From: Bacteroidales bacterium
GTDB taxonomy: Bacteria > Bacteroidota > Bacteroidia > Bacteroidales > FEN-979
Assembly (NCBI GenBank): GCA_030681475.1
Contig: JAUXWT010000039.1
Coordinates: 1 to 42,324 of the forward strand
Length of the DNA stretch: 42,324 bases
Reading direction: 5' to 3'
Below, piece after piece: positions 7,259 through 25,045 of the stretch (position 1 is its first letter; each line of letters starts with the position of its first letter). Under the pieces are notes generated by a model. That model worked only from the letters and a program-made list of their open reading frames with translations, had not been told where the DNA came from and made no database searches. The translations under genes were made by a program, and so were the position numbers.

Positions 7259-7312
7259 AATGCAAACAATGCAAGCAATGTAGACAATGCAAACAATGAA
7301 GATAATGGAAAC
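7259..7312. repeat. Six-copy 9-bp tandem repeat carrying the malQ start codons
   Basis: Six consecutive 9-bp units begin at 7259, 7268, 7277, 7286, 7295 and 7304 with consensus AATGyAArC. Each unit contains an ATG, giving in-frame ATGs at 7260, 7269, 7278, 7287, 7296 and 7305. A TAG at 7281 follows the third. The repeat starts 2 bp after the transporter stop codon and runs into malQ. The same repeat in reverse orientation lies in the GH2 gene at 27142-27186. Confidence 0.85.
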
Positions 7313-8843
7313 CATTTTAAGAGAGAGGGCGGGTGGAATTTTGCTCCATCCTACGTCGCTTCCCGGCAACTATGGGATTGGCACACTTGGAAAGGCAGCA
7401 TTTGATTTTATTGATTTCCTTGTCAGGGGAAAACAACAATACTGGCAAATTCTTCCTTTAGGGCCTACCGGTTACGCCGATTCACCATACCAGTGTTTTT
7501 CAGCACATGCAGGCAATCCCAACCTTATCGACCTTGATTTACTCGTGAAGTCCGGGTTGCTCCATGCCGAAGACCTTTCAGACTTTCCAAACCTGCCAAA
7601 AGAGCGGGTTGATTTTGAAGCGGTACAGGATGCCAGGTTGCCATTGCTGCAAAAGGCCTATCATTCCTTTAATTTGTATGCGAATACCTTCGAAAAGTTG
7701 GCATACCGCAATTTCCAGAAAGACCAGTCGAATTGGATAAATGATTACGCATTGTTCAGGGCGATCAAAGCAAATCGGGAACAAAAGCCCTGGTACCATT
7801 GGGAAAGTCCGTTGAAAATCAGGAATTCTGAGGCGATGATGGCCATGAAGGAACTGCTTCACGACGAGATCGATTTCCATAAATTCATGCAGTTCCTCTT
7901 TTTCAGGCAGTGGATGGCTGTAAAAGAATACGCCCACCACCAGCAGGTTAAAATAATCGGGGACATCCCGTTATATGTCGCCTTTGACAGCGCCGATGCA
8001 TGGGCAAATCCTGAAATCTTTGAGTTTGACGATAACCTCAACCCCATTCGCGTTGGTGGTGTTCCACCGGATTATTTCAGTGAAACCGGACAATTATGGG
8101 GAAACCCGCTGTTCCGTTGGGATGTATTAAAAAAGACAAACTTCAGATGGTGGATCGACCGCATACGCACCAGCCTTTTTCTTTACGATATCATCAGGAT
8201 TGATCATTTCAGAGGCTTTGCAGCCTATTGGGCTATCCCATACGCAGAAAAAACAGCCGTCAACGGGGAGTGGATCCCAGGCCCGGGTAAAGAATTCTTC
8301 AATGCCATGCAAGCTGAGTTTGGCGTATTGCCGATCATTGCCGAAGATCTGGGTGTCATCACCCCGGATGTTGAGGAATTGCGTGACGGATTCGGTTTAC
8401 CCGGGATGAAGATCCTTCAGTTTGCATTCGATGCCTCGGAAACCAACGACTACTTACCGCACAACTATATTAAAAATTGTATTGTCTATACCGGAACACA
8501 TGACAATGATACTTTAACAGGCTGGTTTAAAAATGCCACCCCTGCCGACCAGCAATACGTGCTTGAATACATCAATACCGATGAAAAAGAGATTCACTGG
8601 TCGTTCATCCGTCTTGCCTGGGCTTCGGTGGCTAACCTGGCAATTGTACCCATGCAGGATTTAATGGGATTAGGCACGTCAGCGCGAATGAATCTGCCCG
8701 GGACCACTCAAAACAACTGGCAATGGAGAGCACAGGCAGATTTTTTTACACCAGAACTTGTAAAAAAACTGGCACACCTGACATCACTTTATGGGAGATC
8801 AAAAATTAATAAAACTGATGATAAAATGAATGTTATTATTTAA
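7287..8843 (+). CDS. malQ: 4-alpha-glucanotransferase (amylomaltase), GH77
   Basis: A 518-residue cytoplasmic enzyme that transfers alpha-1,4-glucan segments between maltodextrins, releasing glucose. HPTSLPG..GIG at 21-32 and LPLGPTGYADSPYQ at 56-69 are GH77 hallmarks. Catalytic residues are Asp306 (RIDHFRG), Glu353 (AEDLG) and Asp406 (THDND). The length matches the short bacterial amylomaltase form (about 500), without the extra N-terminal domains of the long Bacteroides form. The start is uncertain: ATGs at 7287, 7296 and 7305 all lie in the 9-bp repeat, and homology begins only near residue 14 (RAGGILLHPTS). The earliest is reported. It is 30 bp after the transporter and 12 bp before the SusA-like gene. 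Confidence 0.93.
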   Translation: MQTMKIMETILRERAGGILLHPTSLPGNYGIGTLGKAAFDFIDFLVRGKQQYWQILPLGPTGYADSPYQCFSAHAGNPNLIDLDLLVKSGLLHAEDLSDFPNLPKERVDFEAVQDARLPLLQKAYHSFNLYANTFEKLAYRNFQKDQSNWINDYALFRAIKANREQKPWYHWESPLKIRNSEAMMAMKELLHDEIDFHKFMQFLFFRQWMAVKEYAHHQQVKIIGDIPLYVAFDSADAWANPEIFEFDDNLNPIRVGGVPPDYFSETGQLWGNPLFRWDVLKKTNFRWWIDRIRTSLFLYDIIRIDHFRGFAAYWAIPYAEKTAVNGEWIPGPGKEFFNAMQAEFGVLPIIAEDLGVITPDVEELRDGFGLPGMKILQFAFDASETNDYLPHNYIKNCIVYTGTHDNDTLTGWFKNATPADQQYVLEYINTDEKEIHWSFIRLAWASVANLAIVPMQDLMGLGTSARMNLPGTTQNNWQWRAQADFFTPELVKKLAHLTSLYGRSKINKTDDKMNVII

Positions 8844-8855
8844 AACTTCATAAAC

Positions 8856-10703
8856 ATGCGTGGTCTTTCACTTTTTCTGCTTGTTCTGATTCCATTCCGG
8901 ATTTTTTCACAGCAAATAACCCTTGACCGTGTTGAACCCCCTTATTGGTGGACAGGTTTTAAACACAACAACCTGCAATTGATGGTTTATGGTAAAAATA
9001 TTGGATCCACAACCGTATCGCTTGACTATCCCGGTTTAGTCCTGAGAAAAGTTCACAAGGTTGAAAACCCAAATTACCTGTTTCTTGATCTGACCATAAA
9101 CAAGGCTATCCGGCCAGGCGTTGCCACGATTGGCTTCAAACTCAGGGATAAAGTAGTTGGCGCCTGCCATTATGAATTGAAGGAACGAAAAATCAATTCG
9201 GCCCGGCGAAAAGGTTTCAGTGCTAAAGATGTAATTTACCTGCTGATGCCCGATCGTTTTGCCAATGGAGATACCTCCAACGACGTGTCTGCAGGAATGA
9301 TCGAACCGGTTGACCGGTCAAACAAGGATGGCCGGCATGGTGGTGACCTGAAAGGTATCCGCGACCACCTGGACTATCTCCGGGATTTAGGAATAACAGC
9401 CTTATGGATCAATCCCTTGCTGGAAAACAATATGACCAGGTACTCCTATCATGGTTATTCCACCACAGATTATTACAGGATCGATCCACGGTTCGGAACC
9501 AATGAAGATTATGTTAAGCTCAGCGATGAACTTCATCAGCGGGGAATCAAATTGATCATGGACATGATCTTCAACCATTGCGGCAGCAACCACTGGTGGA
9601 TGAATGACCTGCCTACAAAAGATTGGGTGAATCAATGGCCGGAATTTACACGCACAAACTACCGGGCAGGAACATATAATGACCCTTATGCATCGAGAGC
9701 CGACAGCAACAAATTCCTTAAGGGTTGGTTCGACATCACCATGCCCGATCTGAACCAGACCAACCCGTATGTCAGGAACTACCTTATCCAGAACAGCATC
9801 TGGTGGGTTGAATTCGCAGGACTTGATGGTATCAGGCAAGACACGCATCCATACGCCTTTAAGGAGATGATGTCGGACTGGGGAAAACGCATGCTGGAAG
9901 AATATCCTGACTTCAATTTTGTCGGGGAATGCTGGCTGAATAACCCGGCATCTGTGGCATACTGGCAAAAAGGTTCGAAAAACAAGGACGGTTACGACTC
10001 CTGGCTTCCCAGTGTTTTTGACTTTCCGTTATACGATGCGCTTAATAAATCCTTTAATGAAGCCGAAGGCTGGAATACGGGGATTATCAGGCTCTTTGAA
10101 GTACTGGCCCAGGATTTTTCATACCCGGACCCTGAAAACATTGTGGTTTTCGCCGACAACCATGATGTAAACCGTTACCTGGATTCACAAGGTGATGATG
10201 TTCGAAAACTTAAAATGGCCATGGCATACGTACTTACCATCAGGGGCATTCCGCAAATCTATTATGGAACGGAGATCCTGATGACGACAGGAGCGGATAA
10301 ATCAGGGGACGGCCCAAAAAGGAAGGATTTTCCCGGGGGATGGCCCGGCGACCTGCGGGATGCCTTTACAGAGCAGGGACGAACCACCGCAGAAACAGAT
10401 ATGTTCAACTACCTCAGGAAAATATTACACTGGCGAAATTCAGCAGAAGCAATTCATACGGGCAAATTCAAACATTTCATCCCGGAAGATGGCATTTATA
10501 TATACTTCAGGTACAATTCACAAAGTACGGTGATGGTCATTATGAACAACAATGAAGAAACAAAAACCATTGAGACCAGACGTTACAAAGAGTTTCTCGA
10601 TAAACACAATTCAGGCATAGAGATCATCTCGGGAAGTATCTTAAATGATCTGTCCAAACTTACTATTCCAGGAAAATCAGCAGAGATCATCGAACTCAGG
10701 TAG
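8856..10703 (+). CDS. susA: SusA-like periplasmic neopullulanase/cyclomaltodextrinase (GH13)
   Basis: A 615-residue exported GH13 enzyme. A signal peptide covers about 1-19 (ending FSQQ). An N-terminal cyclomaltodextrinase-type beta domain lies at about 20-110, starting with a Val-Glu-Pro-Pro-x-Trp-Trp motif near residue 26. The barrel begins at YLLMPDRFANGD. Conserved GH13 sites are DMIFNH at 236-241, GIRQDT at 325-330 (nucleophile Asp329), VGECW with Glu358, and DNHD at 434-437 (Asp437). The domain order and length resemble Bacteroides SusA, which cleaves imported maltooligosaccharides and pullulan in the periplasm. It is 12 bp after malQ. Exact product specificity cannot be read from the sequence. 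Confidence 0.9.
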   Translation: MRGLSLFLLVLIPFRIFSQQITLDRVEPPYWWTGFKHNNLQLMVYGKNIGSTTVSLDYPGLVLRKVHKVENPNYLFLDLTINKAIRPGVATIGFKLRDKVVGACHYELKERKINSARRKGFSAKDVIYLLMPDRFANGDTSNDVSAGMIEPVDRSNKDGRHGGDLKGIRDHLDYLRDLGITALWINPLLENNMTRYSYHGYSTTDYYRIDPRFGTNEDYVKLSDELHQRGIKLIMDMIFNHCGSNHWWMNDLPTKDWVNQWPEFTRTNYRAGTYNDPYASRADSNKFLKGWFDITMPDLNQTNPYVRNYLIQNSIWWVEFAGLDGIRQDTHPYAFKEMMSDWGKRMLEEYPDFNFVGECWLNNPASVAYWQKGSKNKDGYDSWLPSVFDFPLYDALNKSFNEAEGWNTGIIRLFEVLAQDFSYPDPENIVVFADNHDVNRYLDSQGDDVRKLKMAMAYVLTIRGIPQIYYGTEILMTTGADKSGDGPKRKDFPGGWPGDLRDAFTEQGRTTAETDMFNYLRKILHWRNSAEAIHTGKFKHFIPEDGIYIYFRYNSQSTVMVIMNNNEETKTIETRRYKEFLDKHNSGIEIISGSILNDLSKLTIPGKSAEIIELR

Positions 10704-13281: not shown

Positions 13282-15666
13282 ATGAAAATCATACACTTGC
13301 CTTTTATCGCTGCCAGCTTCACCGTGGCGCTCTGGAGCTGTTCCTCAAACAATGACATTTCCGTGGCGAAAGAGCCCCAGATGATCAAACTTTCAGCCCC
13401 CATTCTGGTCGATGCCGATTCAACCGTGATCATGCTGGCCGATTACCTGGTGAATCCAAAACAGATCGATTCACTTGAACTTGACAAATCGCTGACCGCG
13501 ACGATTTCTGCAGATTCGACACAAATGGTGATCAAACCGGCCGCAAGGGATTTCCCAAAACTTTCTGTTTTGAAACTTTGGTCGGAAGGTTACTCTTATT
13601 CATTGATGCTGAAAAAATCGAACAGACTGAAATTCCGTTTTACCTTTGATCCGAAGAATAAAAAATACAAACATGTGCAGATCAAGGGCCAGATGAACGA
13701 ATGGAACGCCGCATCGGGATATCTTTTTGAAAAAGACGGCAAATGGCACATCGACTTCCATCTCTATCCTGGTAAGTATCAATATAAATTACTGATCGAC
13801 GGAAATGAGATCTCCGATCCTGCCAATACCGATTCGGTCAGCAATGGCTTGGGCGGATTTAATTCGCTGCTGACCCTCGGAAATCTCAACCAGTCGGGGC
13901 TGCCAGACTTATATACCTCTTCTGCCGAAGGAAGGAAGATCGTGATCGGTCTGAATAACAACGCCGACTCCATTTTTGTCTTCTGGCAGAACTATCTGCT
14001 TGAAAAAAAATTCTGGAAAAGGGACAGTAACGGCATCGTCATTGAGATTCCGCGAAAAGCCAGGGAATTCGGGCGAAGTTTTATACGGGTTTGGGCCTTT
14101 AACAAATCAGGTATATCAAACGAGGTACTTGTACCATTGGAAAAGGGGAAAATTCTTTCCGATCCTAAAAATCTTAGCCGAACTGACCGTGAGGCGATAG
14201 TGATGTATTTCCTGATGGTCGACCGCTTTAAAAACGGAAACCCGGAGAATGATTCTGCTGTCAATGACAAGGAGATTGACCCCAAGGTGAATTACATGGG
14301 CGGGGACCTCGCAGGGATCGCAAGGGAAATCAAAGATGGTTATTTTACCAATCTTGGGATCAATACTTTATGGATATCGCCCGTCACTCAAAATCCTTAT
14401 ATCGGGTATGTTGAATATCCTGCCCCACACCGCAAATTCTCAGGCTATCACGGGTACTGGCCAATTACCCTCACCACGGTGGATACCCGCTTCGGCAATG
14501 GTGATGAACTCAACAGGCTGGTCAATGAAGCCCACAGCAACAACCTCAACGTTATCCTCGATTTTGTGTCGCACCATGTTCACCAGGAATACGCTGCGCT
14601 GAAAGCTCATCCCGAATGGATTACTCAGGTTGACCTCCCCGGGAAGAGGAAAAACATCCGGATGTGGGATGAACAGCGTCTAACAACCTGGTTTGATGTA
14701 TTCCTTCCCACGTTCGACCTCGCCAACCCTGAAGTAGCCGATATGGTATCCGACTCGGCAGCTTTCTGGATCAAAGAGTACAACCTCGACGGTTTCCGCC
14801 ATGATGCGGCCAAACATGTGCCTGAAAATTACTGGAGGATGCTGACCCGAAAACTCGATCAGCAAGTGGTGATTCCTGAGCAGAGAGCTGTTTTCCAGAT
14901 CGGCGAAACTTTTGGGAGCCGTGAACTTATCGGAAGTTATATCAATCCGGGCATGCTGGATGCCCAGTTCGACTTTAACCTTTACTGGGATGCCAAATCA
15001 GCCTTTGCCATGGATAATTTTTCGTTCCGCGACCTCAACTACTCATTGCAGCAAAGTTTCAGCTACTACGGAGATCATCATCTTATGGGCAACATCACAG
15101 GAAACCAGGATATGCCGCGGTTTATTTCCTATGCAAGTGGCGCGTTGAGTGTCAATGAGGATGCCACGGAGGCGGGGTGGAAGCGCGACATCCGGGTGAA
15201 AGATACGGCAGGGTATCAAAAACTCGCTTGTCTCCACGCGTTCAATATGACCATCCCCGGCATTCCGGTGATCTACTATGGGGATGAATTCGGCATGGCT
15301 GGCGCCGGCGACCCCGATAACCGCCGCATGATGAAATTCGACAGTCTCAATCAGCATGAGCAACATCTCAAGGAGATCACTTCAAAACTGGCCCATCTCA
15401 GGACTGCCAACCTGTCACTGGTATATGGGGATTTCAGTACACTGAAAGTCAACGACAAGACGTTTGTGTACCTGCGCTCCTATTTTGATAAAGCAGTGAT
15501 CGTGATTTTCAATAAAGACAGATCGGCGAGAAAAATCGAATTCGAAATCCCTGACCGTTTCAGCGAGAGCGTCTTCATGGCCCAATCCGGTAATAAATTC
15601 GTTAAGGACAAAGGAAAAGTAAGCCTTGATCTTCAGGGTAATTCATTTGAAATTCTATCAAATTAA
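13282..15666 (+). CDS. GH13 alpha-amylase-family lipoprotein with CBM48-like N-terminal domain
   Basis: A 794-residue lipoprotein: lipobox LWSC with Cys20. Residues 30-110 form a small beta domain; 115-200 form a CBM48-like fold (HVQIKGQMNEWN...YKLLIDGNEISDP), followed by another beta domain to about 300. The GH13 barrel begins at YFLMVDRFKNGN (309). DFVSHH is at 427-432, GFRHDAAKH at 504-512 (nucleophile Asp508), and GET at 541-543 (acid/base Glu542). The usual NHD motif is replaced by GNQD at 607-610, Asp610 being the third acid and Gln609 replacing His. Membrane-anchored in the periplasm or at the surface, it should cleave maltodextrins or starch. It lies 61 bp after the esterase. Confidence 0.88.
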   Translation: MKIIHLPFIAASFTVALWSCSSNNDISVAKEPQMIKLSAPILVDADSTVIMLADYLVNPKQIDSLELDKSLTATISADSTQMVIKPAARDFPKLSVLKLWSEGYSYSLMLKKSNRLKFRFTFDPKNKKYKHVQIKGQMNEWNAASGYLFEKDGKWHIDFHLYPGKYQYKLLIDGNEISDPANTDSVSNGLGGFNSLLTLGNLNQSGLPDLYTSSAEGRKIVIGLNNNADSIFVFWQNYLLEKKFWKRDSNGIVIEIPRKAREFGRSFIRVWAFNKSGISNEVLVPLEKGKILSDPKNLSRTDREAIVMYFLMVDRFKNGNPENDSAVNDKEIDPKVNYMGGDLAGIAREIKDGYFTNLGINTLWISPVTQNPYIGYVEYPAPHRKFSGYHGYWPITLTTVDTRFGNGDELNRLVNEAHSNNLNVILDFVSHHVHQEYAALKAHPEWITQVDLPGKRKNIRMWDEQRLTTWFDVFLPTFDLANPEVADMVSDSAAFWIKEYNLDGFRHDAAKHVPENYWRMLTRKLDQQVVIPEQRAVFQIGETFGSRELIGSYINPGMLDAQFDFNLYWDAKSAFAMDNFSFRDLNYSLQQSFSYYGDHHLMGNITGNQDMPRFISYASGALSVNEDATEAGWKRDIRVKDTAGYQKLACLHAFNMTIPGIPVIYYGDEFGMAGAGDPDNRRMMKFDSLNQHEQHLKEITSKLAHLRTANLSLVYGDFSTLKVNDKTFVYLRSYFDKAVIVIFNKDRSARKIEFEIPDRFSESVFMAQSGNKFVKDKGKVSLDLQGNSFEILSN

Positions 15667-15722: not shown

Positions 15723-17081
15723 ATGAAAAAAGTATCATTTCTCATCGCCGTGTCAATCACAGCGATCTGCTCCTGCAACCGTCAACCGGTAACTGAAAAA
15801 GTTGATCCTTCCGCACATGTTACCTGGAGCAGGAACGCGACCATTTACGAAGTGAACATCCGGCAATACACACCACAAGGCACTTTCAAGGCCTTTGAGC
15901 AGGAATTGCCCCGATTGCAAAAAATGGGAGTCGACATCCTCTGGCTGATGCCAATCAACCCGCTGGGTGAGAAAAACCGGAAAGGAAGCCTTGGCAGCTA
16001 TTATTCCGTGAGTGATTACCTGTCAGTCAATCCGGAGTATGGAACGAAGCAGGATTTCGTTGATTTGGTTAAAAAAGCCCATGAACTCAGCATGAAAGTG
16101 ATCGTTGACTGGGTGGCTAACCACACTTCATGGGATAATGATCTGATCACCAAGCATCCTGAATGGTACAAGAAAGACTCGACCGGGAATATCGTCCCGC
16201 CTGTTACCGACTGGTCCGACGTTGCCGCGCTTGATTACAGTCAGCAGGATTTACGGGAATATATGACCGACGCGTTGCTCTACTGGATCAGGGAGGCCGA
16301 CATTGACGGGTATCGCTGCGATGTTGCGGGGATGATGCCGGTCTCTTTCTGGCATGAAGCGATCCCAAAATTGAAACAATACAAACCCGTTTTCATGCTG
16401 GCCGAAGACGCATCACCCAAAATGCACGATACCGGCTATTTCGATGCTACCTATTCATGGGATCTGTTTCACATGATGAATCAGATTGCACAAAAAAAGA
16501 AAACTGCAGATAAGATCGACTCCCTGTTTGCTGCTGAAAAAAAGAACTTTCCTGCAGATTCCTACCGGATGCTGTTTACTTCAAACCACGATGAAAACTC
16601 GTGGAATGGCACGGAATACGAACGATTGGGGGCCGGTGCACGCACATTTGCCGTCCTTACCTTCACCTTTCCGGGAATTCCGTTGGTTTACAGCGGACAG
16701 GAATCGGCGATGAACAAGCGGTTGCGTTTTTTCGACAAAGATACCATCTCATGGGGAAACTATCCGCTGGAATCCTTTTATACAACTCTGATGCAATTGA
16801 AGAAAAAGAACGACCTGATTGCAAGTGGTGATAGTGGTGGCCGGTTCATCAAGGTTGGTTCCAGTAATGATAAGTCGGTATATGCTTTCCTCCGGAAAAA
16901 GGGTATCAGGCAGATCTTTGTTATCCTCAATTTTTCCGACACCGATCAGACTGTGGTATTCAAGGGGAGTAATTTCACAGGCAAATACAGGGAACTGTTT
17001 ACAAGCCAGGAGAAAGAGTTTAGAGCCGGCGACAAAGTTGCGCTGTCTCGCTGGCAGTATCTTGTATATGAAAATGAATGA
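15723..17081 (+). CDS. GH13 alpha-amylase-family lipoprotein, compact form
   Basis: A 452-residue lipoprotein (ICSC, Cys18) consisting of little more than the GH13 catalytic domain and a short beta tail. The barrel begins at ATIYEVNIRQYTPQGTF (39-55). DWVANHTS is at 129-136, GYRCDVAG at 196-203 (nucleophile Asp200), AED at 227-229 (acid/base Glu228) and SNHDEN at 287-292 (Asp290). There is no extra N-terminal binding domain. Such compact lipoproteins usually act on maltooligosaccharides as alpha-amylase or oligosaccharide-trimming enzymes. It is the last gene of the plus-strand run, 56 bp after the preceding GH13 gene and about 245 bp before the hairpin terminator. Confidence 0.88.
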   Translation: MKKVSFLIAVSITAICSCNRQPVTEKVDPSAHVTWSRNATIYEVNIRQYTPQGTFKAFEQELPRLQKMGVDILWLMPINPLGEKNRKGSLGSYYSVSDYLSVNPEYGTKQDFVDLVKKAHELSMKVIVDWVANHTSWDNDLITKHPEWYKKDSTGNIVPPVTDWSDVAALDYSQQDLREYMTDALLYWIREADIDGYRCDVAGMMPVSFWHEAIPKLKQYKPVFMLAEDASPKMHDTGYFDATYSWDLFHMMNQIAQKKKTADKIDSLFAAEKKNFPADSYRMLFTSNHDENSWNGTEYERLGAGARTFAVLTFTFPGIPLVYSGQESAMNKRLRFFDKDTISWGNYPLESFYTTLMQLKKKNDLIASGDSGGRFIKVGSSNDKSVYAFLRKKGIRQIFVILNFSDTDQTVVFKGSNFTGKYRELFTSQEKEFRAGDKVALSRWQYLVYENE

Positions 17082-17383: not shown

Positions 17384-18445
17384 TTAGTTCTTCTCCAGTT
17401 TATACTTGTAGATCGGGTTGCTCAGGTTGAGCGTAACTGTATAATTACCGGCCGATGGCACTGCAATATTGGCGCCGCCTGCTTCTAATGAGCCATTGGC
17501 TCCATCGTCGCCGTAATTAAGATCCCAAGCGCCATTTGCCCTGAATTTAATGTCAGCGGCTGTAAGCTCCAAAGTCACTGTCCACACCTTATTGGCCGCA
17601 TCGTATGTCATGGGGGTGTCGTTATCCCATCCGCCCGGTGTAGCGCTACCTATTACCCCCCAGGTAGTTTTAAGTTTTGTATATGTTAATCCGACCAAGT
17701 CAACATTGAGCTTGTAATACCCTGCCTCTGCAGCCACGATGTTATCACCACCCGGCTCAAGCGTTCCATTAGCCCCGGTGTCGCCCCAGTTATTATCCCA
17801 GCTTGGCCCCTGGGTGAACTTGAACTCGGTATTGGGATCCGGGAAATTGATATAGCCTTCATACTTCCCGTTAGATTTCACCGATGCGATGGTTGTGGTG
17901 GAATCTTCGGGATGCCAGCCCTGGTAGTTGCCTGGCACACCCAATAACGGGTAGATGATAGGCACATAGTACGGCGTGATGGTTTGTTTTACCACCGCCG
18001 AATAAACAGGTTTGATCGAATCAAGCGTAACTCCGTTGTTATCTTTCACAACCGTCTTTATCCTGAACTCCATGGCTAATGGCTCAGGATTCTTCGGCTC
18101 AAACAACAATGGAAGCAGTTTGCCATTCAGTTCATAGTTCATGATGGAAAACTCTCTCACGGTATTTACAGAGCCTAGCGCCGACGGATCAGCAAAATTG
18201 TTACCCTGTTTATCCATCTGGAGTGTGTAGGTTGGAATGACCATGGCACCGTAACCGGTTGCAGTCCAGGTGAACTTCAACATCTGTGCAGAATCAGTTT
18301 TCTGCAATACTACTGTTGCCCCGCCAGGTACCGTTAATGAAGGCGTTCCCGGCGATGAATTCAAAATGGCTTTTGTTTCATCCTTTTTGCACGACAGCAA
18401 GCTGAACAAACCAATGGTCAGTATAAATATTGTTATTTTTTTCAT
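17384..18445 (-). CDS. susE: SusE-like surface starch-binding lipoprotein
   Basis: A 353-residue lipoprotein (LLSC, Cys19). Residues 25-155 match the N-terminal SusE domain (SPGTPSLTVP...FTWTATGYG). Two tandem glycan-binding modules follow: 163-258 (LLGVPGNYQGWHP...YYKLNVDL) and 261-353 (WGVIGSATPGGWD...YKYKLEKN). Both have the Trp-rich GxYQGW or GGWD motifs of SusE/SusF modules, which hold alpha-glucans at the outer face of the outer membrane. It starts 20 bp after susD and is the last gene of the unit. There is no separate susF; this SusE has a SusE N-domain plus two modules, and nearly the same two modules occur inside the neighbouring SusD. Confidence 0.9.
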   Translation of the reverse strand: MKKITIFILTIGLFSLLSCKKDETKAILNSSPGTPSLTVPGGATVVLQKTDSAQMLKFTWTATGYGAMVIPTYTLQMDKQGNNFADPSALGSVNTVREFSIMNYELNGKLLPLLFEPKNPEPLAMEFRIKTVVKDNNGVTLDSIKPVYSAVVKQTITPYYVPIIYPLLGVPGNYQGWHPEDSTTTIASVKSNGKYEGYINFPDPNTEFKFTQGPSWDNNWGDTGANGTLEPGGDNIVAAEAGYYKLNVDLVGLTYTKLKTTWGVIGSATPGGWDNDTPMTYDAANKVWTVTLELTAADIKFRANGAWDLNYGDDGANGSLEAGGANIAVPSAGNYTVTLNLSNPIYKYKLEKN

Positions 18446-18465: not shown

Positions 18466-20688
18466 TTAATATCCAGTATTTTGCTTGAGATTTGGATTTG
18501 CAGTAACATCGGATGCAGGGATCGGGAACAGGTTGTAGGTTGAACTGACCGCCTGACCATCCTTTGAGCCGCCTTTCCAAGGCCACAAATAGGTTCCATT
18601 GCTGAACTGTCCAAAACGGATCAGGTCAGTCCTGCGATGTCCTTCCCAATACAATTCACGGGCTCTTTCATCCAGGATGAAAGGAAGGTCGAGTTCCGAA
18701 ACCTGGATCTTGCAACGCTCATCCTGGCCGAAGGCACGCATACGTACGTTGTTAACAAGGGTAAGGGCTGTACCCAGATCACCTCCGCTACCCTGGCGCT
18801 TCACCGCTTCGGCATACATCAGGTAAACATCAGCAAGACGGAACATCGGAAAATCAGTATCCACAAAGGTTGCATCAAAACCGGGCGCCCCGGTACTGGT
18901 GACATTGGTGAATTTAGGGACTGCATAACCATCGGTGAATACCCCGATATCATTGATCTCAAGTGATTGACCGTTTGTATAGAACATATATCGCGAATCA
19001 ACTAAAGGCGCCTGGTTCAGCTCGATGAGGTAAGTATAATCCGGTGCGCCGAGTTTCATGGTCACTTTATACTCTCCTGATGAGGGGATCGCAATATTGT
19101 CGCCCCCTGCCTCAAGAATGCCATCGGCTCCGGTATCACCGTAATTAATATCCCATCCGCTGTTTGCGCGGAATTTTATCTCCTTTCCGGTTCCTCCGGT
19201 CAGGTTAATTACAACCGTCCAAACGTCATTGGTTGCATCCAAGGTCATCGGCTGGTCAGAATCCCAACCTCCGGCAGTTGCCGAACCGATCACACCCCAT
19301 GTCGTCTTGACAACCGTGTATGTCAGTGCGGTCATGTCAACATTGATTTTATAATAACCTGCATCTGCAATCTCGATGTTGCTTCCCGGGTGTGCCAGCA
19401 TGCCGGTTGAAGTCCCGTCATCACCGTAGTCATTTGTCCAGTCGGGCGTCGTGCAGATCTTAAACTGAGTATTTGCTTCAGCAAAGTTCAGATAGCCTTC
19501 GAATTTGTTGTCGCTGGCTACTGATTTAAGCACAGTCGTTGTCTTGGCCGGATCCCATCCCTGGTATGAACCGGGAACATACACAACCGGATATGCACTG
19601 ACATTCCTGTGCGGTTTGGGTGAAGACCACGGCAGATCAGCTTGTTCGGGAAATTTATTCACCAGGGCGCTGGTGGTGCGGATACCGCCCCATCCTCCGC
19701 CGATGCCGTAGTCGCCGGGAACCATGCTGCCACCAACGGCGGCATGAACGATGAAGGTCGTTCCACCCCAGGTTTGTGAACGTGCGCCGTCGAAGGTAAC
19801 CATGAAAATCCCTTCATTGGAAAAGTTGTTATCGGCAGTAAACAGGTTCTTATATTCAGGTTCGAGACTGTAACCGGCGCTGATCACCTTATTGCAATAG
19901 GTGATGCATTCGGTGTACTTGGTTTGTCCGATATACACTCCAGCATTCAGATACAGCTTGGCAAGGAGTGTCCAAACAGCAGCCTGCCCTGCACGGCCAT
20001 ACTCTGCACCTTTGACGGAGGACATCAACGGTTCAACGGCTAAAAGTTCACTTTCGACATAATTAAACAGGTCTGCACGGGGGATCTGTGTCGGAAAGAA
20101 TTTGCCTACAGGATCATTCTCGGTAACAAAAGGCACATTACCAAAAAGATCCAGTGCATGATAGTAACTCAATGCCCTCAGGAAACGGGCTTCGTTACGG
20201 TATTGCTCAATCATCGTCTGATTCGCTCCGGTCAACCCACGCTCGGCAAGTTTACTCTCTGTAGATTCCCTGATGAACTCATTGCAGATACAGACCTGGT
20301 AAAAGATTCTGTAATACATGGCCGAAATGAATACATCGCTGGAGCCCCAGTTCTGACCATGAAAGTTCTTGATAGTCTGGTCGTTCCATCCGATAACTGC
20401 TTCATCGGTGGTTAATTCCTGGTGATACCAGTAACCACGCATATATTCACCAAATCCCTCATCAATCCCCTTGATATCAGGTTTGCCGGCAGGACCCTGC
20501 TGGCCCGACATCGAAAGTCCGGCGTACAATTTGGCGAGAACCGCTTTATAGTTTGCCGCGGTTTTATACACATTGGCAGAGTTCATGTCGTTCGGATCAA
20601 TGGGTTGCGTATCCAGATCCTTGACGCAGGAGGCAAAGAACATGGTTATTGCCATGACCATGCTTGATATTTTGAATATTCTTTTCAT
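18466..20688 (-). CDS. susD: SusD family starch-binding lipoprotein with two inserted SusE-like modules
   Basis: A 740-residue surface lipoprotein (FFASC, Cys21). Residues 1-362 carry the SusD TPR core (RNEARFLRALSYYHALDLFGNVPFV at about 164-188 is a family hallmark, seen here only in part: RALSYYHALDLFG). Residues 559-740 carry the rest of the SusD fold (PMFRLADVYLMYAEA at about 614-628; the ending LFPIPASD..ANPNLKQN). Between them, residues about 363-558 are two SusE-type glycan-binding modules. Without them the protein would be about 545 residues, the normal SusD length. It partners SusC, sitting on the barrel as a lid and capturing alpha-glucan. It starts 20 bp after susC and ends 20 bp before susE. 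The reading frame is intact throughout. Confidence 0.92.
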   Translation of the reverse strand: MKRIFKISSMVMAITMFFASCVKDLDTQPIDPNDMNSANVYKTAANYKAVLAKLYAGLSMSGQQGPAGKPDIKGIDEGFGEYMRGYWYHQELTTDEAVIGWNDQTIKNFHGQNWGSSDVFISAMYYRIFYQVCICNEFIRESTESKLAERGLTGANQTMIEQYRNEARFLRALSYYHALDLFGNVPFVTENDPVGKFFPTQIPRADLFNYVESELLAVEPLMSSVKGAEYGRAGQAAVWTLLAKLYLNAGVYIGQTKYTECITYCNKVISAGYSLEPEYKNLFTADNNFSNEGIFMVTFDGARSQTWGGTTFIVHAAVGGSMVPGDYGIGGGWGGIRTTSALVNKFPEQADLPWSSPKPHRNVSAYPVVYVPGSYQGWDPAKTTTVLKSVASDNKFEGYLNFAEANTQFKICTTPDWTNDYGDDGTSTGMLAHPGSNIEIADAGYYKINVDMTALTYTVVKTTWGVIGSATAGGWDSDQPMTLDATNDVWTVVINLTGGTGKEIKFRANSGWDINYGDTGADGILEAGGDNIAIPSSGEYKVTMKLGAPDYTYLIELNQAPLVDSRYMFYTNGQSLEINDIGVFTDGYAVPKFTNVTSTGAPGFDATFVDTDFPMFRLADVYLMYAEAVKRQGSGGDLGTALTLVNNVRMRAFGQDERCKIQVSELDLPFILDERARELYWEGHRRTDLIRFGQFSNGTYLWPWKGGSKDGQAVSSTYNLFPIPASDVTANPNLKQNTGY
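19015..19602 (-). other. Tandem SusE-like glycan-binding modules inserted in SusD
   Basis: This part of susD encodes residues about 363-558. Module 1 (about 366-458) begins VVYVPGSYQGWDP; module 2 (about 461-557) begins TTWGVIGSATAGGWD. They align in the same order with SusE residues 163-353; by eye about 61 of 92 positions of module 2 are identical. In one stretch of 15 identical residues around the TTWGVIGSAT motif, 11 are encoded by different codons, so this is an old, selected duplication and not a copying or assembly artefact. The insertion is in frame and sits in a loop between LPWS and DSRYMFYT. Confidence 0.88.
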
Positions 20689-20708: not shown

Positions 20709-23700
20709 TTACAGCGAAATGTTTACACCCAGTACATAAACCCTGGACCGCGGATATATGTTGTTGTCGATACCCAGGTTGATTTCAGGATCAAGACCTT
20801 CATATTTGGTTATGGTAAACACATTGTTCACAGTGAAAGAAAGGCGGAAGCCCAGTGTGTTCTTGATCAGGTTACCAAAATCATAGGCAAGTGTCAGGTA
20901 GTCCAGTTTAAAATAAGATGCATTCTGGATATAATAATCAGACAAATACTGCTGATTGACAAAATTCACATCAAAAACATCTGTTGTTACGTTGCCAAGA
21001 TAGGGTCCTTCCGGACGGAATAAATTAGAATAAACACCCCTGTTCGACGAGTTATTGTTATACATGTAGTTGCCAATGGCGGCATGACCTGCAGCAGACA
21101 AGGAGACCTTTTTATAATTCAGGGTTGTAAAAACCCCAAAAGTGGTCGTTGCGTTCGGACTCTTATAATGGTAGCGATCTGCATCTGTGATTTTACCATC
21201 ATTGTTGCGGTCAACATATAACCCTTCAATCGGGTTGTCGTTTTTATCATACACCTGCTGAAATACAAAGAAGGAGTTGCTTGGATATCCTACACTGTGG
21301 ATCTGGATAGTGTTTCCGACACCTCCTGAGATACCCCCGGTAAACACTCCCAGGTAGGTTGTATCGTCGATGGCCGTAAGTTTTGTAATTTTATTGCTGT
21401 TGACAGCCATATTGATATTGATATCCCATTTCCAATCCTTGGTAACGATGGGTTTTCCGCCAAGGCTGAATTCAAATCCCTTATTTTCCATATCGCCGAT
21501 ATTGGTCACGATATAGTTGGTCAGATTTGTGCCGGCAGGGACCTGGATCTCATTGATCAGATCGTTGGTGGTGCGGTTATAGTAATCAACAGATCCGGTT
21601 ATTCTATCTTTAAGAAAGCCAAAATCAAGCCCGATGTTCCAGGTCTTGGTGGTTTCCCATTTGATCCCTTTATCATACCCGTTCGGGCGGAGGGTCCGGT
21701 ACCAGACATTGCCAAACTGGTATGTTGACAGGGGGTCGCCAAGCGTGTACAATGGAAGGTATGGATACCAGTTATCCAGGATATCCTGCTGCCCTGTAAC
21801 ACCCCATCCCAGTCTGAGTTTCAATTGAGAAATGACTTTGGAATCCCGGAGAAAAGCTTCGTCGTTGATTTTCCATGCCAGCGCAGCGGAAGGGAAAAGA
21901 CCCCACCGTGTGCTTGATGAAAATTTCGATGAACCGTCGTCGCGGAGAGTAAAGGTTAACAGATACCTGTCGGCAAGGGTATAATTCAACCGGCCGTAAA
22001 AGGAGACAAGGTAATACTCTTTTTTAACCACGACAGTGGTGCGATATTTTATCGCGGTATCGTGCGGCACATTATTATTGAAGGTATTGTTTTCCACATA
22101 AAAATGCTGCCATGAATACCCGGCCATTACATCGAATTTACTATTAATGCTTTTAACCTCTTTTACATAGTTAAGGTAAAAATCGAGCAGGCTGTTCTTT
22201 TTGGTCTGGTCATACTTACGGTCGAGGCCCTTATTAAGAAAGGACCCGACCGATTCGTGCGGGATATCTGAATTGACAGGAATGTAAACTGTTCCTTCGC
22301 TCTTGGTATAATCGTAACCGAGGTTCAGGTTGGCACGCAGATCTGGTAAAAAATGAAGTTTGTAATCCAACTGTGCGTTACCGAGAAAGCGGTTTACCGT
22401 GGATTTGTCATCTTTTAATTCGAGCATGGCAACCGGGTTTTTTGTTGCCTGGTTGACAGGATCGCGCTGTCCGAGTGAATCGGCCGCCTGCAGCCATGCC
22501 CAGTAACCGCCGTAGTTCCTGTTTATGAGCGTCCGGTTTTCCATCACGGGTTTGGTCGGATCCATGTTAATGGCTGCCCCGATGGCCCCATTGTCGGCAA
22601 AGCGGTTCTTCTCATTCATATATTTTGCATGAACATTGAGTTTCAGGTAATTCTTGAAGAAGGAAGGGTTCAGGTTTGCGCCAATGGAGGTGCGCTTCAT
22701 ATTATCCGTCTTCAAATTACCATCCTGATAATCATAACCCAATGACACGCGATAGGGCATGGCGCTTACCGCTCCGGTTAATGCCAGGTTGTGGTCGGTG
22801 CCGATAGCTGAGCGAAAAACTTCCTTTTGCCAGTCGGTCGACGTAGTACTTGTCGTATCGAGCAGGCCAAGAACATCGGCCCTGTTCGGATATCTTTTCT
22901 TGACCAGGTTGCGAAACTCGTCTCCATTGAGGACTTTAGTCTTGTTCGGAACGGTAGATATGGAAATATTCCCTGAATATTCCAGTCCAAACTTCTTGCT
23001 GCCCGGGATCCCTTTCTTGGTGGTAATCAGGATGACTCCGTTGGAAGCCCGTGAGCCATAGATGGCTGTTGCAGAAGCATCCTTAAGAACCACATAAGTT
23101 GCAATATCGTCGGGATTGATCATACTCAGGGATCCACGCGCGCCGGATGTTGCAGCATTATCAATGGGTACACCATCGATAACCACCAAAGGATCGTTGG
23201 AGGCGTTAATGGAAGAGCCCCCCCTGATTCGGATAACAGCATCACCACCGGGAGCGCCGCCAAGTGTGGTAACCGTTACCCCGGGGATTTTACCGATGAT
23301 CGCTTGCTGAGGTGAAGTAATTCTGCCCTGGTTGAAATCTTTTTCCCCTAATGTCGCAACTGAACCCGTGGCATCCCCACGCTTAACAGTTCCGTAACCG
23401 ATCACAACCAATTCCTTAAGATTTCTCACGCCGGTAGACAGGGCGACATTCATCGTTTTCTGACCGGTAAAGGCGATCTCCTGGGTAGCAAACCCAACAT
23501 AGGAGAATACCAGAACATCACCACTATTTACCTGGAGTGAATAATTTCCGTCAACATCCGTAACCGTTCCGGTCGTTGTTCCCTTTATCACCACCGTTAC
23601 ACCCGGGATCGAAGTTCCATCCGAGGCATCTGTTACCAGTCCCGTCAGGGCTACTTCCTGTGCATATACTACCGATGCCGATGCAAAGGCGAGGACAAGA

Positions 23701-23735
23701 AACAGATGGCGTAACCAAAGTACACGTTTCTTCAT
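20709..23735 (-). CDS. susC: SusC/RagA family TonB-dependent outer-membrane transporter
   Basis: A 1008-residue outer-membrane transporter. A signal peptide covers about 1-25 (ending VVYAQ). A carboxypeptidase-regulatory-like beta domain lies at about 28-100 (LTGLVTDASDGTSIPGVTVV). The SusC-specific segment LKELVVIGYGTVKRGDATGS starts at 106 and includes the likely TonB box. The plug spans about 120-240 (IRIRGGSSIN, VIDGVPID, DASATAIYGSRASNGV). The rest is a 22-strand barrel ending RVYVLGVNISL. It imports oligosaccharides through the outer membrane using TonB energy, together with the SusD encoded 20 bp downstream. Size is normal. Ligand, starch or maltodextrin, is inferred from neighbours. 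Confidence 0.94.
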   Translation of the reverse strand: MKKRVLWLRHLFLVLAFASASVVYAQEVALTGLVTDASDGTSIPGVTVVIKGTTTGTVTDVDGNYSLQVNSGDVLVFSYVGFATQEIAFTGQKTMNVALSTGVRNLKELVVIGYGTVKRGDATGSVATLGEKDFNQGRITSPQQAIIGKIPGVTVTTLGGAPGGDAVIRIRGGSSINASNDPLVVIDGVPIDNAATSGARGSLSMINPDDIATYVVLKDASATAIYGSRASNGVILITTKKGIPGSKKFGLEYSGNISISTVPNKTKVLNGDEFRNLVKKRYPNRADVLGLLDTTSTTSTDWQKEVFRSAIGTDHNLALTGAVSAMPYRVSLGYDYQDGNLKTDNMKRTSIGANLNPSFFKNYLKLNVHAKYMNEKNRFADNGAIGAAINMDPTKPVMENRTLINRNYGGYWAWLQAADSLGQRDPVNQATKNPVAMLELKDDKSTVNRFLGNAQLDYKLHFLPDLRANLNLGYDYTKSEGTVYIPVNSDIPHESVGSFLNKGLDRKYDQTKKNSLLDFYLNYVKEVKSINSKFDVMAGYSWQHFYVENNTFNNNVPHDTAIKYRTTVVVKKEYYLVSFYGRLNYTLADRYLLTFTLRDDGSSKFSSSTRWGLFPSAALAWKINDEAFLRDSKVISQLKLRLGWGVTGQQDILDNWYPYLPLYTLGDPLSTYQFGNVWYRTLRPNGYDKGIKWETTKTWNIGLDFGFLKDRITGSVDYYNRTTNDLINEIQVPAGTNLTNYIVTNIGDMENKGFEFSLGGKPIVTKDWKWDININMAVNSNKITKLTAIDDTTYLGVFTGGISGGVGNTIQIHSVGYPSNSFFVFQQVYDKNDNPIEGLYVDRNNDGKITDADRYHYKSPNATTTFGVFTTLNYKKVSLSAAGHAAIGNYMYNNNSSNRGVYSNLFRPEGPYLGNVTTDVFDVNFVNQQYLSDYYIQNASYFKLDYLTLAYDFGNLIKNTLGFRLSFTVNNVFTITKYEGLDPEINLGIDNNIYPRSRVYVLGVNISL

Positions 23736-23848: not shown

Positions 23849-25045
23849 TTAAAAATCATATGACGTATTCATGTAATCAGCCGACGGCAAAATATTGCCT
23901 GAAAAATCAAACAGGGTGCAATTATCCCATGCGGAGCCTGTTCCCCATTTGTCGCGCATGGGAGATGTGATCCAGCCCGGTTCCCAGTACATGATACCGG
24001 TACCGCCCCCGTCAACAATCGCCTGGGTAAGATCCTTCAGGTATGCCGACTGTCCTGCAACAGTCAGCGGATACCCCCGGATGCTGTCCCCCTGACCAAT
24101 TATATTGGCGTATTCATCAGCATCACTACCTGTCCAGGGATAGGCCGTTTCCACGATCATGACCTGCTTGTTATAGGTCGCCCGGATGCTCTGAATGGCC
24201 TGTGTCACCTGATCCATACGATAAAAAGTCGACCACTTTGAGTAGTGGGATACGCCGAGGATGTCAAAGTCCGTTACCTTTCCCTTCTTTACGACACCCT
24301 CAATCCACCAGGTTGCATGCTGGAATTGAGCTACATGCAAGATGATTTTTGGTTTGATTTCCGACGAGGCTGAAAAATCACGCACTGCCTTTATCCCTGC
24401 ATTGAGTAACGCTCCGAATGGCAGCCAGTTATCATTTTTCACCTCTCCTACCGGAAACAACATCCCGGGATTAGTCTCATTGCCAACCTGCACCATTTCG
24501 GGCGTAAGTCCCTTGCTTTTCAGATAATTCAAAATTTTCAGCGTGTAGTTGTACACTGAATCTTTAAGCGCTGACGGATCCAATCCGACCCAGGTAGCAG
24601 GCGTTTCCTGGTGGTTGGGATCTGCCCAGGTGTCGGAGTAATGAAGGTTGAGATTAACCGCCATACCGGCATCTTTAGCACGCCGGATGGTCTTTTCAAC
24701 ATCATAAAGGTCACTGTATAATTTTCCCCCGGTAATTTCCGAAACCCAGGCAGGATTGTGCCATAATCGAACCCTGACCGTGTTGGCCCCATGGTTTTTC
24801 ATGATCAGGAATGGATCGGCTATTTTTCCTGAATCACTGTAAACACCACCATAATCTTCTATCTCGTTTACATAGGACAGATCTACTCCCATGCTGAATT
24901 TATCCCAGGCGTAAGGAACGGTAACAATTTCTTTCACCGGGTCGGGTTCAGATTTTTTTTGACTGCAGGAAAGAACTAATAAGCAAGGAGTTGCAAGGAT
25001 GATTAAGGCCTGCTTAACCCGGGTAACAGTATTGTTAAGAGACAT
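23849..25045 (-). CDS. Endo-beta-1,4-galactanase lipoprotein (GH53)
   Basis: A 398-residue lipoprotein (LVLSC, Cys27) of the GH53 family, which cuts beta-1,4-galactan side chains of type I arabinogalactan and pectin. SMGVDLSYVNEIEDYGG at 51-67, TVRVRLWHNPAW at 89-100 and LHYSDTWADPNHQ at 134-146 are GH53 hallmarks. The acid/base Glu190 lies in VGNETNPG and the nucleophile Glu299 in VETAYPW. Both are present and the length is typical. It is the first gene of the minus-strand unit that continues to susCDE after 113 bp, with a good promoter upstream. A beta-galactanase at the head of a starch-type Sus unit is unexpected. Confidence 0.92.
   Translation of the reverse strand: MSLNNTVTRVKQALIILATPCLLVLSCSQKKSEPDPVKEIVTVPYAWDKFSMGVDLSYVNEIEDYGGVYSDSGKIADPFLIMKNHGANTVRVRLWHNPAWVSEITGGKLYSDLYDVEKTIRRAKDAGMAVNLNLHYSDTWADPNHQETPATWVGLDPSALKDSVYNYTLKILNYLKSKGLTPEMVQVGNETNPGMLFPVGEVKNDNWLPFGALLNAGIKAVRDFSASSEIKPKIILHVAQFQHATWWIEGVVKKGKVTDFDILGVSHYSKWSTFYRMDQVTQAIQSIRATYNKQVMIVETAYPWTGSDADEYANIIGQGDSIRGYPLTVAGQSAYLKDLTQAIVDGGGTGIMYWEPGWITSPMRDKWGTGSAWDNCTLFDFSGNILPSADYMNTSYDF

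What the first reader, a model, noticed from the sequence alone, without database searches (positions are those of the whole stretch)
18466..20688. SusD with two SusE-type glycan-binding modules inserted in its fold
Seen: residues 1-362 and 559-740 are a normal SusD, and about 195 residues between them are two SusE-like modules. Removing them leaves about 545 residues, a usual SusD length. Known: SusD binds starch on the SusC lid, while SusE and SusF are separate lipoproteins with such modules. Inference: the fusion places two extra binding sites on the moving lid, so capture and import are coupled in one protein. I do not recall this architecture as standard; novelty needs a search.
Basis: partly seen in the sequence, partly recalled or inferred. 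Interest (0 to 1): 0.85.

Follow-up and report, generated by a model that had tools for sequence, protein, structure and literature searches.

The report
Starch-binding pair built into SusD lid
In this uncultured bacterium the lid protein of the starch importer carries two extra modules of a starch-binding type built into the middle of its fold, a conserved and apparently exchangeable arrangement seen in many relatives that offers a new way to test whether starch capture and import are physically coupled.

Summary
ORF 18466-20688(-) encodes a 740-residue SusD interrupted at residues ~364-558 by two tandem SusE/SusF-type (X25) modules. AlphaFold2 models them as separate beta modules (insert alone: pLDDT 91.5); the insert's only PDB fold matches at E<=0.001 are Sca5 X25-2, SusF and SusE, all starch binders. 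SusD's aromatic starch site and four insert tryptophans are kept in 44-45 of 46 insert-bearing sequences.

It is not an assembly artefact and not a recent copy of the adjacent SusE. It occurs in 19 of 43 genomes of the family, in 7 more families of an order sample and 2 of a class sample. The inserts are compatible with one clade; their SusD cores are not (AU p 1e-38), so the cassette was gained, lost or exchanged. Two close genomes have almost identical SusD DNA to residue 355 but 75-77% identity across both modules, a probable swap. Four relatives carry one module at the same loop.

Most likely it puts an extra alpha-glucan-binding platform on the SusC lid. Binding, position relative to SusC and effect on uptake are inferred. 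Nine searches of an open-access library listed no description.

The parts
18466..20688 (-). SusD lipoprotein with inserted tandem modules, 740 aa (the finding)
   Evidence: ORF; Pfam; AF2
19624..20688 (-). SusD N-terminal part, residues 1-355, with lipobox-like Cys21 and starch-site equivalents W101, W307, W333
   Evidence: PDB alignment; C21, W101 and W333 invariant in the 33-row alignment; counts
19306..19587 (-). inserted module 1 (residues 368-461), W378 and W417
19018..19299 (-). inserted module 2 (residues 464-557), W475 and W512
18469..18990 (-). SusD C-terminal part, residues 567-740
   Evidence: Pfam; PDB alignment
17384..18445 (-). adjacent SusE (353 aa): PF14292 N-domain plus the same kind of module pair (57% identity to the insert)
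20709..23735 (-). partner SusC TonB-dependent transporter (1008 aa)
   Evidence: TIGR04056 768.6 bits, cut-off 368.25
13282..15666 (+). GH13 alpha-amylase family enzyme, starch context
15723..17081 (+). GH13 alpha-amylase family enzyme, starch context
7287..8843 (+). GH77 4-alpha-glucanotransferase, starch context
8856..10703 (+). cyclomaltodextrinase-type GH13, starch context

Best explanation
The protein is the lid lipoprotein (SusD) of a starch importer into which an ancestral SusE-type tandem of X25 starch-binding modules was inserted, at a loop between two conserved SusD segments. SHOWN by computation: SusD fold and aromatic starch-site residues kept, two modules of the SusE/SusF/X25 fold with a conserved pattern of four tryptophans, retention across many families with low dN/dS, and a history of gain, loss or exchange of the cassette, with one clear probable swap. 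INFERRED: the pair forms an extended alpha-glucan platform on the cell-surface side of the lid; it holds a starch or maltodextrin chain next to the SusD site and the SusC mouth, so part of the work done by separate SusE/SusF proteins is fixed 1:1 to the transporter lid.
For: Two-part SusD match. AF2 modules after a low-confidence linker; insert alone pLDDT 91.5, pTM 0.84; its only PDB matches at E<=0.001 are Sca5 X25-2, SusF and SusE. Aromatic arc W101, W307 (W/Y/F), W333 kept in 45 of 46 two-module sequences (one gap each); W378 and W417 in 44, W475 and W512 in 45 of 46. Starch locus: several GH13 enzymes, GH77, cyclomaltodextrinase, MFS transporters. Best NCBIfam family is starch SusD, 418.4 bits. 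Insert dN/dS 0.06-0.15 in the 12 of 28 genus pairs where it could be computed (NG86; many dS above 1.5, so rough). An ORF with the SusE N-domain directly follows in 42 of 46 insert-bearing loci; two of the other four end at a contig edge (domain profile built from these loci). In the whole genome PF16411 occurs only in this SusD and this SusE.
Against: No binding assay and no complex model; the orientation of the insert relative to SusC is unknown. The AF2 model has pLDDT below 50 at residues 94-108, which hold W101, so the geometry of the SusD starch site is not established. NF033071's strict cut-off (725 bits) is not met (418.4). Insert-free relatives mostly show the same single SusE and evidently manage without the insert: a second module-bearing protein was seen in only 6 of 66 insert-free loci, so the insert is not a simple replacement of SusF. 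By sequence the profile of insert and SusE pairs finds two BT3088 dextran-SGBP sequences (E 3e-6 and 6e-6) before SusF (E 3e-4) and does not list SusE; the window's SusE alone finds no SusE or SusF in the PDB. [quoted passage not shown] A GH53 gene precedes susC in the same direction.
Confidence: 0.72

Rival explanations
1. The modules are mainly a docking or spacing element: they recruit SusE or a surface amylase to the lid, with sugar binding secondary.
For: A separate SusE is retained next door in 42 of 46 insert-bearing loci. A paper title seen only in reference lists says that SusE facilitates starch uptake independently of starch binding (Foley 2018).
Against: The four tryptophans are kept in 44-45 of 46, as expected for a binding platform; the fold matches are to starch binders.
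Confidence: 0.15
2. The modules bind another glycan (for example beta-1,4-galactan), making a lid of mixed specificity.
For: A GH53 gene directly precedes susC on the same strand and a GH2 lies nearby; GH53 homologs recur in some other insert-bearing loci.
Against: The rest of the locus is mostly alpha-glucan machinery; fold matches are alpha-glucan binders; an insert-free locus (L161) also has GH53 homologs.
Confidence: 0.07
3. The insert is a variable surface domain, diversified by recombination to escape surface predators such as phages, with nutrition a secondary matter.
For: Probable cassette swap between L007 and L008, with a second divergent patch at residues 621-666 outside the insert; in 5 of 6 close pairs the insert differs more than the core.
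Against: Tryptophans conserved and low dN/dS; one of 6 close pairs shows no difference (p 0.25).
Confidence: 0.08
4. Assembly or binning artefact.
For: The window's genome is in 111 contigs, and 33 of 34 named records are titled MAG.
Against: 19 of 43 genomes of the family carry the complete ORF; G342 has it on a 1.4-Mb contig of a two-contig genome.
Confidence: 0.01
5. Recent local copy of the neighbouring SusE module pair.
For: 57% identity and adjacent genes.
Against: Window insert plus window SusE pair as sisters is rejected (AU p 0.001), while all 46 SusD inserts as one clade is not (AU p 0.81).
Confidence: 0.01

Closest known systems
SusD of Bacteroides thetaiotaomicron (3ck7, 3ck9)
   Same: Fold (target-normalised TM 0.79-0.80), aromatic starch-site residues aligned, partner SusC
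   Different: No inserted modules; a shorter stretch (about chain 318-369, unaligned) lies at the insertion point
SusE and SusF (4fch, 4fe9)
   Same: Tandem X25-type modules; fold match to the insert
   Different: Separate lipoproteins; the SusE here has its own PF14292 N-domain, which the SusD lacks
Sca5 X25-2 / Sas20 domain 2 of Ruminococcus bromii (7rpy)
   Same: Tandem X25 pair with a four-tryptophan platform that binds maltoheptaose (passages of PMC9112005); best PDB fold match to the insert
   Different: Part of an amylosome protein, not a transporter lid
SusG with CBM58 inserted in domain B
   Same: Precedent within the Sus system for a starch-binding module inserted inside another domain (passage of PMC11267923)
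   Different: The host protein is the amylase, not the lid; a different module
Looped/open SusD groups in marine Flavobacteriia (PMC11093988, passages)
   Same: Variation of a binding-site loop in alpha-glucan SusDs
   Different: About 17-residue loop, no inserted module mentioned in the passages seen

Membership tests
SusD family (PF07980) | Pfam model above cut-off | tested here: met
   120.3 bits vs 23.1
SusD family (PF07980) | SusD fold | tested here: met
   Foldseek of the AF2 model: 3jys TMt 0.86, 3ck9 0.79
SusD family (PF07980) | paired susC gene | tested here: met
   TIGR04056 768.6 bits in the adjacent gene 20709-23735
SusD family (PF07980) | lipoprotein signal with acylated Cys | tested here: inconclusive
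   Cys21 invariant in 33 rows; no signal-peptide program run
Starch SusD (NF033071) | score over curated cut-off 725 | tested here: not met
   418.4 bits; none of 393 genomes of the order sample, nor the 14 control genomes, has a match over it, so the cut-off is narrow
Starch SusD (NF033071) | aromatic starch arc W98/Y296/W320 (B. theta; numbering and roles recalled) | tested here: met
   aligned to W101, W307, W333
SusE/SusF-type module (PF16411 / X25) | PF16411 above cut-off | tested here: met
   65.1 vs 27.5 bits; both modules over it
SusE/SusF-type module (PF16411 / X25) | PF22058 X25 above cut-off | tested here: not met
   23.2 vs 27 bits
SusE/SusF-type module (PF16411 / X25) | SusE/SusF/X25 fold | tested here: met
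   7rpy, 4fe9, 4fch at E 2e-7 to 3e-6 (query TM 0.36-0.51 for the pair)
SusE/SusF-type module (PF16411 / X25) | binds alpha-glucan | not testable with these tools
   needs binding assay
SusE protein (PF14292) | PF14292 N-terminal domain | tested here: not met
   absent from this SusD at E<=1; the only PF14292 match in the genome is in the adjacent gene

The most novel reading that the evidence does not exclude
A recombining capture cassette: tandem X25 modules are an interchangeable part of SusD lids in starch importers of uncultured Bacteroidota, gained, lost and swapped as a unit at one permissive loop, giving the moving lid its own long-chain alpha-glucan platform, so that capture by the SusE/SusF-like part and import by SusC are mechanically coupled and tuned by allelic exchange of the cassette.
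Probability: 0.4. Interest if true: 0.75.

Novelty: new variant of a known kind. Interest (0 to 1): 0.58.

Why it matters
Whether the starch system works as a stable complex or by transient assembly around immobile SusE/SusF is open: the utilisome paper contrasts the two models and argues from an AlphaFold model that SusE, SusF and SusG are unlikely all to bind one SusCD (passages of PMC7618045). A natural SusD with the SusE-type pair fused into it at 1:1, with close relatives that lack it, is a ready-made experiment on that question. The L007/L008 pair, near-identical in SusD up to the insert and different in the insert, is a natural domain-swap control. It also shows a lid loop that accepts about 200 extra residues.

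Tried and rejected
Assembly artefact: rejected, see the family, order and class surveys. Recent copy of the neighbour SusE: rejected by AU test. Insert replaces SusF: no clean trade-off. In the run of same-strand genes after SusD a second module-bearing protein was seen in 0 of 46 insert-bearing and 6 of 66 insert-free loci; runs were built mechanically from ORFs of 100 aa or more with gaps up to 400 bases, and a number of contigs or fetched stretches end early.

Single origin by vertical descent alone: rejected for the SusD cores (AU p 1.2e-38; 45 of 90 rows, the set; later counts use 46 because L116 was added), while the 46 two-module inserts as one clade are not rejected. All these are quick LG+G4 trees with many open forks, and recombination inside the core would also disturb them. 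In the free insert tree two other rows, L065 and L107, lie inside the insert group behind a starred branch. Core and insert distances correlate moderately (Mantel r 0.57 over 44 rows, permuted maximum 0.19; L097 and L116 left out). Gain, loss and recombination were not separated case by case.

One-module inserts: grouping L120/L157 with their own SusE module 1 is not rejected (p 0.86), with the sampled two-module first modules it is borderline (p 0.068); L118/L119 with second modules is not rejected (p 0.45). These tests used random subsets of 25 of 46 inserts and 25 of 85 or 86 SusE modules, so independent origin is not settled. In the single-module tree few columns were available and the first-module group needed 9 changes.

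Two longer starch SusDs of the order sample without a two-module length (G421 611 aa, G285 591 aa): no module hit in the SusD; the neighbouring gene has module hits in G421 and only a hit below threshold in G285. Sampling is biased toward insert-bearing sequences because the query carries the insert; with an insert-free family model is less biased: of the 150 matches listed (list cut by the tool) 18 have frames of 680 aa or more, 129 of 500-580, two of 591-611, and one (G348) is cut by a contig end.

Full report
OBSERVATION. ORF 18466-20688 on the minus strand encodes 740 residues. Pfam finds SusD_RagB (120.3 bits, cut-off 23.1), SusF_SusE with two stretches (65.1 bits, cut-off 27.5) and a sub-threshold X25 match. 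The PDB search aligns it to SusD in two pieces, and no best stretch listed lies in 363-558. In the genome (111 contigs, 98.67% complete) the whole protein is found once and its insert has one other match, the next gene; PF16411 at E<=0.001 hits only this SusD and that SusE, two modules each, and PF14292 only the SusE.

STRUCTURE. AlphaFold2 with 33 sequences gives mean pLDDT 81.7, pTM 0.71: a helical SusD core, beta modules at about 368-461 and 464-557, and pLDDT below 50 at 17-29, 94-108, 349-355, 358-363 and 706-709. The stretch 94-108 holds W101, so the starch-site geometry is not established. Against the PDB the whole model is SusD (3jys TMt 0.86; 3ck9 0.79). The insert alone (residues 358-566, 29 sequences) reaches pLDDT 91.5 and pTM 0.84, and its only matches at E<=0.001 are Sca5 X25-2 (7rpy), SusF (4fe9) and SusE (4fch). 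TM-scores for the pair are moderate (0.36-0.51, query-normalised), as expected if the angle between modules differs. In Sca5 X25-2 and its homolog two X25 modules form one extended site with four tryptophans and bind maltoheptaose, and single modules failed to bind (passages of PMC9112005). The insert keeps two such tryptophans per module (W378, W417; W475, W512); residue-by-residue correspondence with Sca5 was not computed.

CONSERVATION. Over 116 SusDs (46 two-module, 4 one-module, 66 none; the distant outgroup rows and a second, 499-aa SusD of L187 were dropped before counting) the equivalents of the SusD aromatic arc are kept: W101 45 of 46 and 65 of 66, W307 as W/Y/F 45 of 46 and 66 of 66, W333 45 of 46 and 66 of 66 (two-module and none). 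The position of B. theta W96 is mostly I. The roles of those B. theta residues are recalled, not from a call. Insert W378 and W417 are kept in 44 of 46, W475 and W512 in 45 of 46. Insert dN/dS is 0.06-0.15 in the 12 of 28 genus pairs where it could be computed, against 0.05-0.25 for the core; most distances are near saturation. This points to purifying selection on the insert.

DISTRIBUTION. Family: 19 of 43 genomes (own included) carry the full-length insert-bearing ORF, 63-81% identical in the relatives; three congeners (G010, G019, G024) carry the same SusD without it. Order sample: 17 of 393 genomes full-length, plus G141 (688 aa, both modules) and G348 (cut by a contig end), in 8 families, the window's included. 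Class sample: G431, G626, G740 and G513 (cut at its start by a contig end) of 395, in two further families. Phylum sample: G626 and G740 again, of 395. The samples overlap. G342 has it on a 1.4-Mb contig. With an insert-free family model in the order sample, 141 of 393 genomes have a starch-type SusD at E<=1e-60, and 18 of the 150 listed matches have frames of 680 aa or more. One-module forms at the same loop: G755, G1057, G1028, G1001.

EVOLUTION. On the core tree the two-module state needs 9 changes, at least 5 forced by strong branches; forcing all two-module cores together is rejected (AU p 1.2e-38). The inserts, in contrast, are compatible with one clade (AU p 0.81) apart from SusE pairs; in the free tree they share a branch (SH-aLRT 98) with only two other rows, L065 and L107. 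The window's insert and the window's SusE pair are not sisters (AU p 0.001). The simplest reading is that the cassette arose from a SusE-type pair, probably once, and was then exchanged and lost repeatedly. Within the window's genus the three insert-free SusDs nest among insert-bearing ones, which reads as loss or replacement.

CASSETTE SWAP. L007 (G015) and L008 (G009) differ at 1 of 1080 nucleotides in residues 1-355, at 66 of 291 and 70 of 279 in modules 1 and 2, at 5 of 162 in residues 567-620, at 42 of 138 in 621-666 and 1 of 222 in 667-740. Outside, the DNA is 90-100% identical per 90-base window over the 4.8 kb before the insert (SusC and the first part of SusD included) and 98-100% over the roughly 450 bases after SusD to the contig end. 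The likeliest reading is replacement of the cassette by recombination. A strain chimera in one assembly cannot be excluded, but that too would need two insert alleles behind one SusD. Of 6 close pairs tested, the insert differs significantly more than the core in 5 (Fisher p from 2e-45 to 9e-4) and not in one (p 0.25); four of the six come from one group of near relatives, so they are not independent.

CONTEXT. The window is a starch locus: GH13 enzymes, GH77, cyclomaltodextrinase, MFS transporters, SusC-SusD-SusE, with a GH53 before susC and a GH2. SusE directly follows in 42 of 46 insert-bearing loci; L005 and L037 end there, and L095 (G626) and L096 (G740) have no SusE next. The same kind of pair also occurs in other proteins of relatives (L109-L112; Fib_succ_major, fn3 or Lcl_C domains), so it is a shuffled part.

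MECHANISM. Most likely the insert is an extra alpha-glucan platform on the lid. Shown: folds, conserved binding-type residues, locus. Inferred: starch binding, outward position, effect on uptake. The utilisome work describes a mobile binding protein that docks near SusD and the hydrolase, and leaves the starch system's arrangement open (passages of PMC7618045). Here part of that function would be covalently on SusD. Against: insert-free relatives do without it, and a passage in PMC10316084 reviews that SusD polysaccharide binding is dispensable when SusE homologs are present.

LITERATURE. Nine searches of the open-access library listed no paper whose title or abstract start describes a SusD with inserted SusE/SusF/X25 modules. 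Listings were complete and partial in the others (20 of 21, 44, 31, 63 and 34 papers; 10 of 19). Subscription papers are mostly absent from the library. One paper holds SusD, X25 and starch together, PMC9112005. Passages, not full texts, were read of PMC11093988, PMC7618045, PMC10316084, PMC9112005, PMC11267923 and PMC6298971.

VERDICT. Real, conserved, not found described, and a new variant of a known system rather than a new kind.

Noticed in passing
window 23849-25045 (-): A GH53 (endo-beta-1,4-galactanase family) gene directly precedes susC on the same strand in an otherwise starch-type locus; GH53 homologs recur in related loci (among those listed: L032, L034, L039, L040, L121, L134, L143, L155, L117), also in insert-free L161 (14 hits shown of 19).
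   Followed up: partly
L007/L008, SusD residues 621-666: A second short divergent patch (42 of 138 nucleotides) in otherwise near-identical SusD sequences, outside the insert.
   Followed up: partly
L109:3560-6064, L110:4698-6560, L111:2079-6053, L112:4106-5506: The same module pair in other proteins with Fib_succ_major, fn3 or Lcl_C domains.
   Followed up: partly
L006, L008, L009, L043, L074, L077-L080: Some insert-bearing loci have a downstream SusE of a divergent type whose modules barely match the insert profile, so SusE type and insert vary independently.
   Followed up: no
window 32492-35188 (-): 898-aa ORF with no Pfam or NCBIfam match at E<=0.001 and no homolog at E<=1e-40 in the loci fetched by then.
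   Followed up: no
L117:2727-4499 (-): 591-aa protein with five hits to the module-pair profile near an insert-bearing SusD that lacks an adjacent SusE.
   Followed up: no
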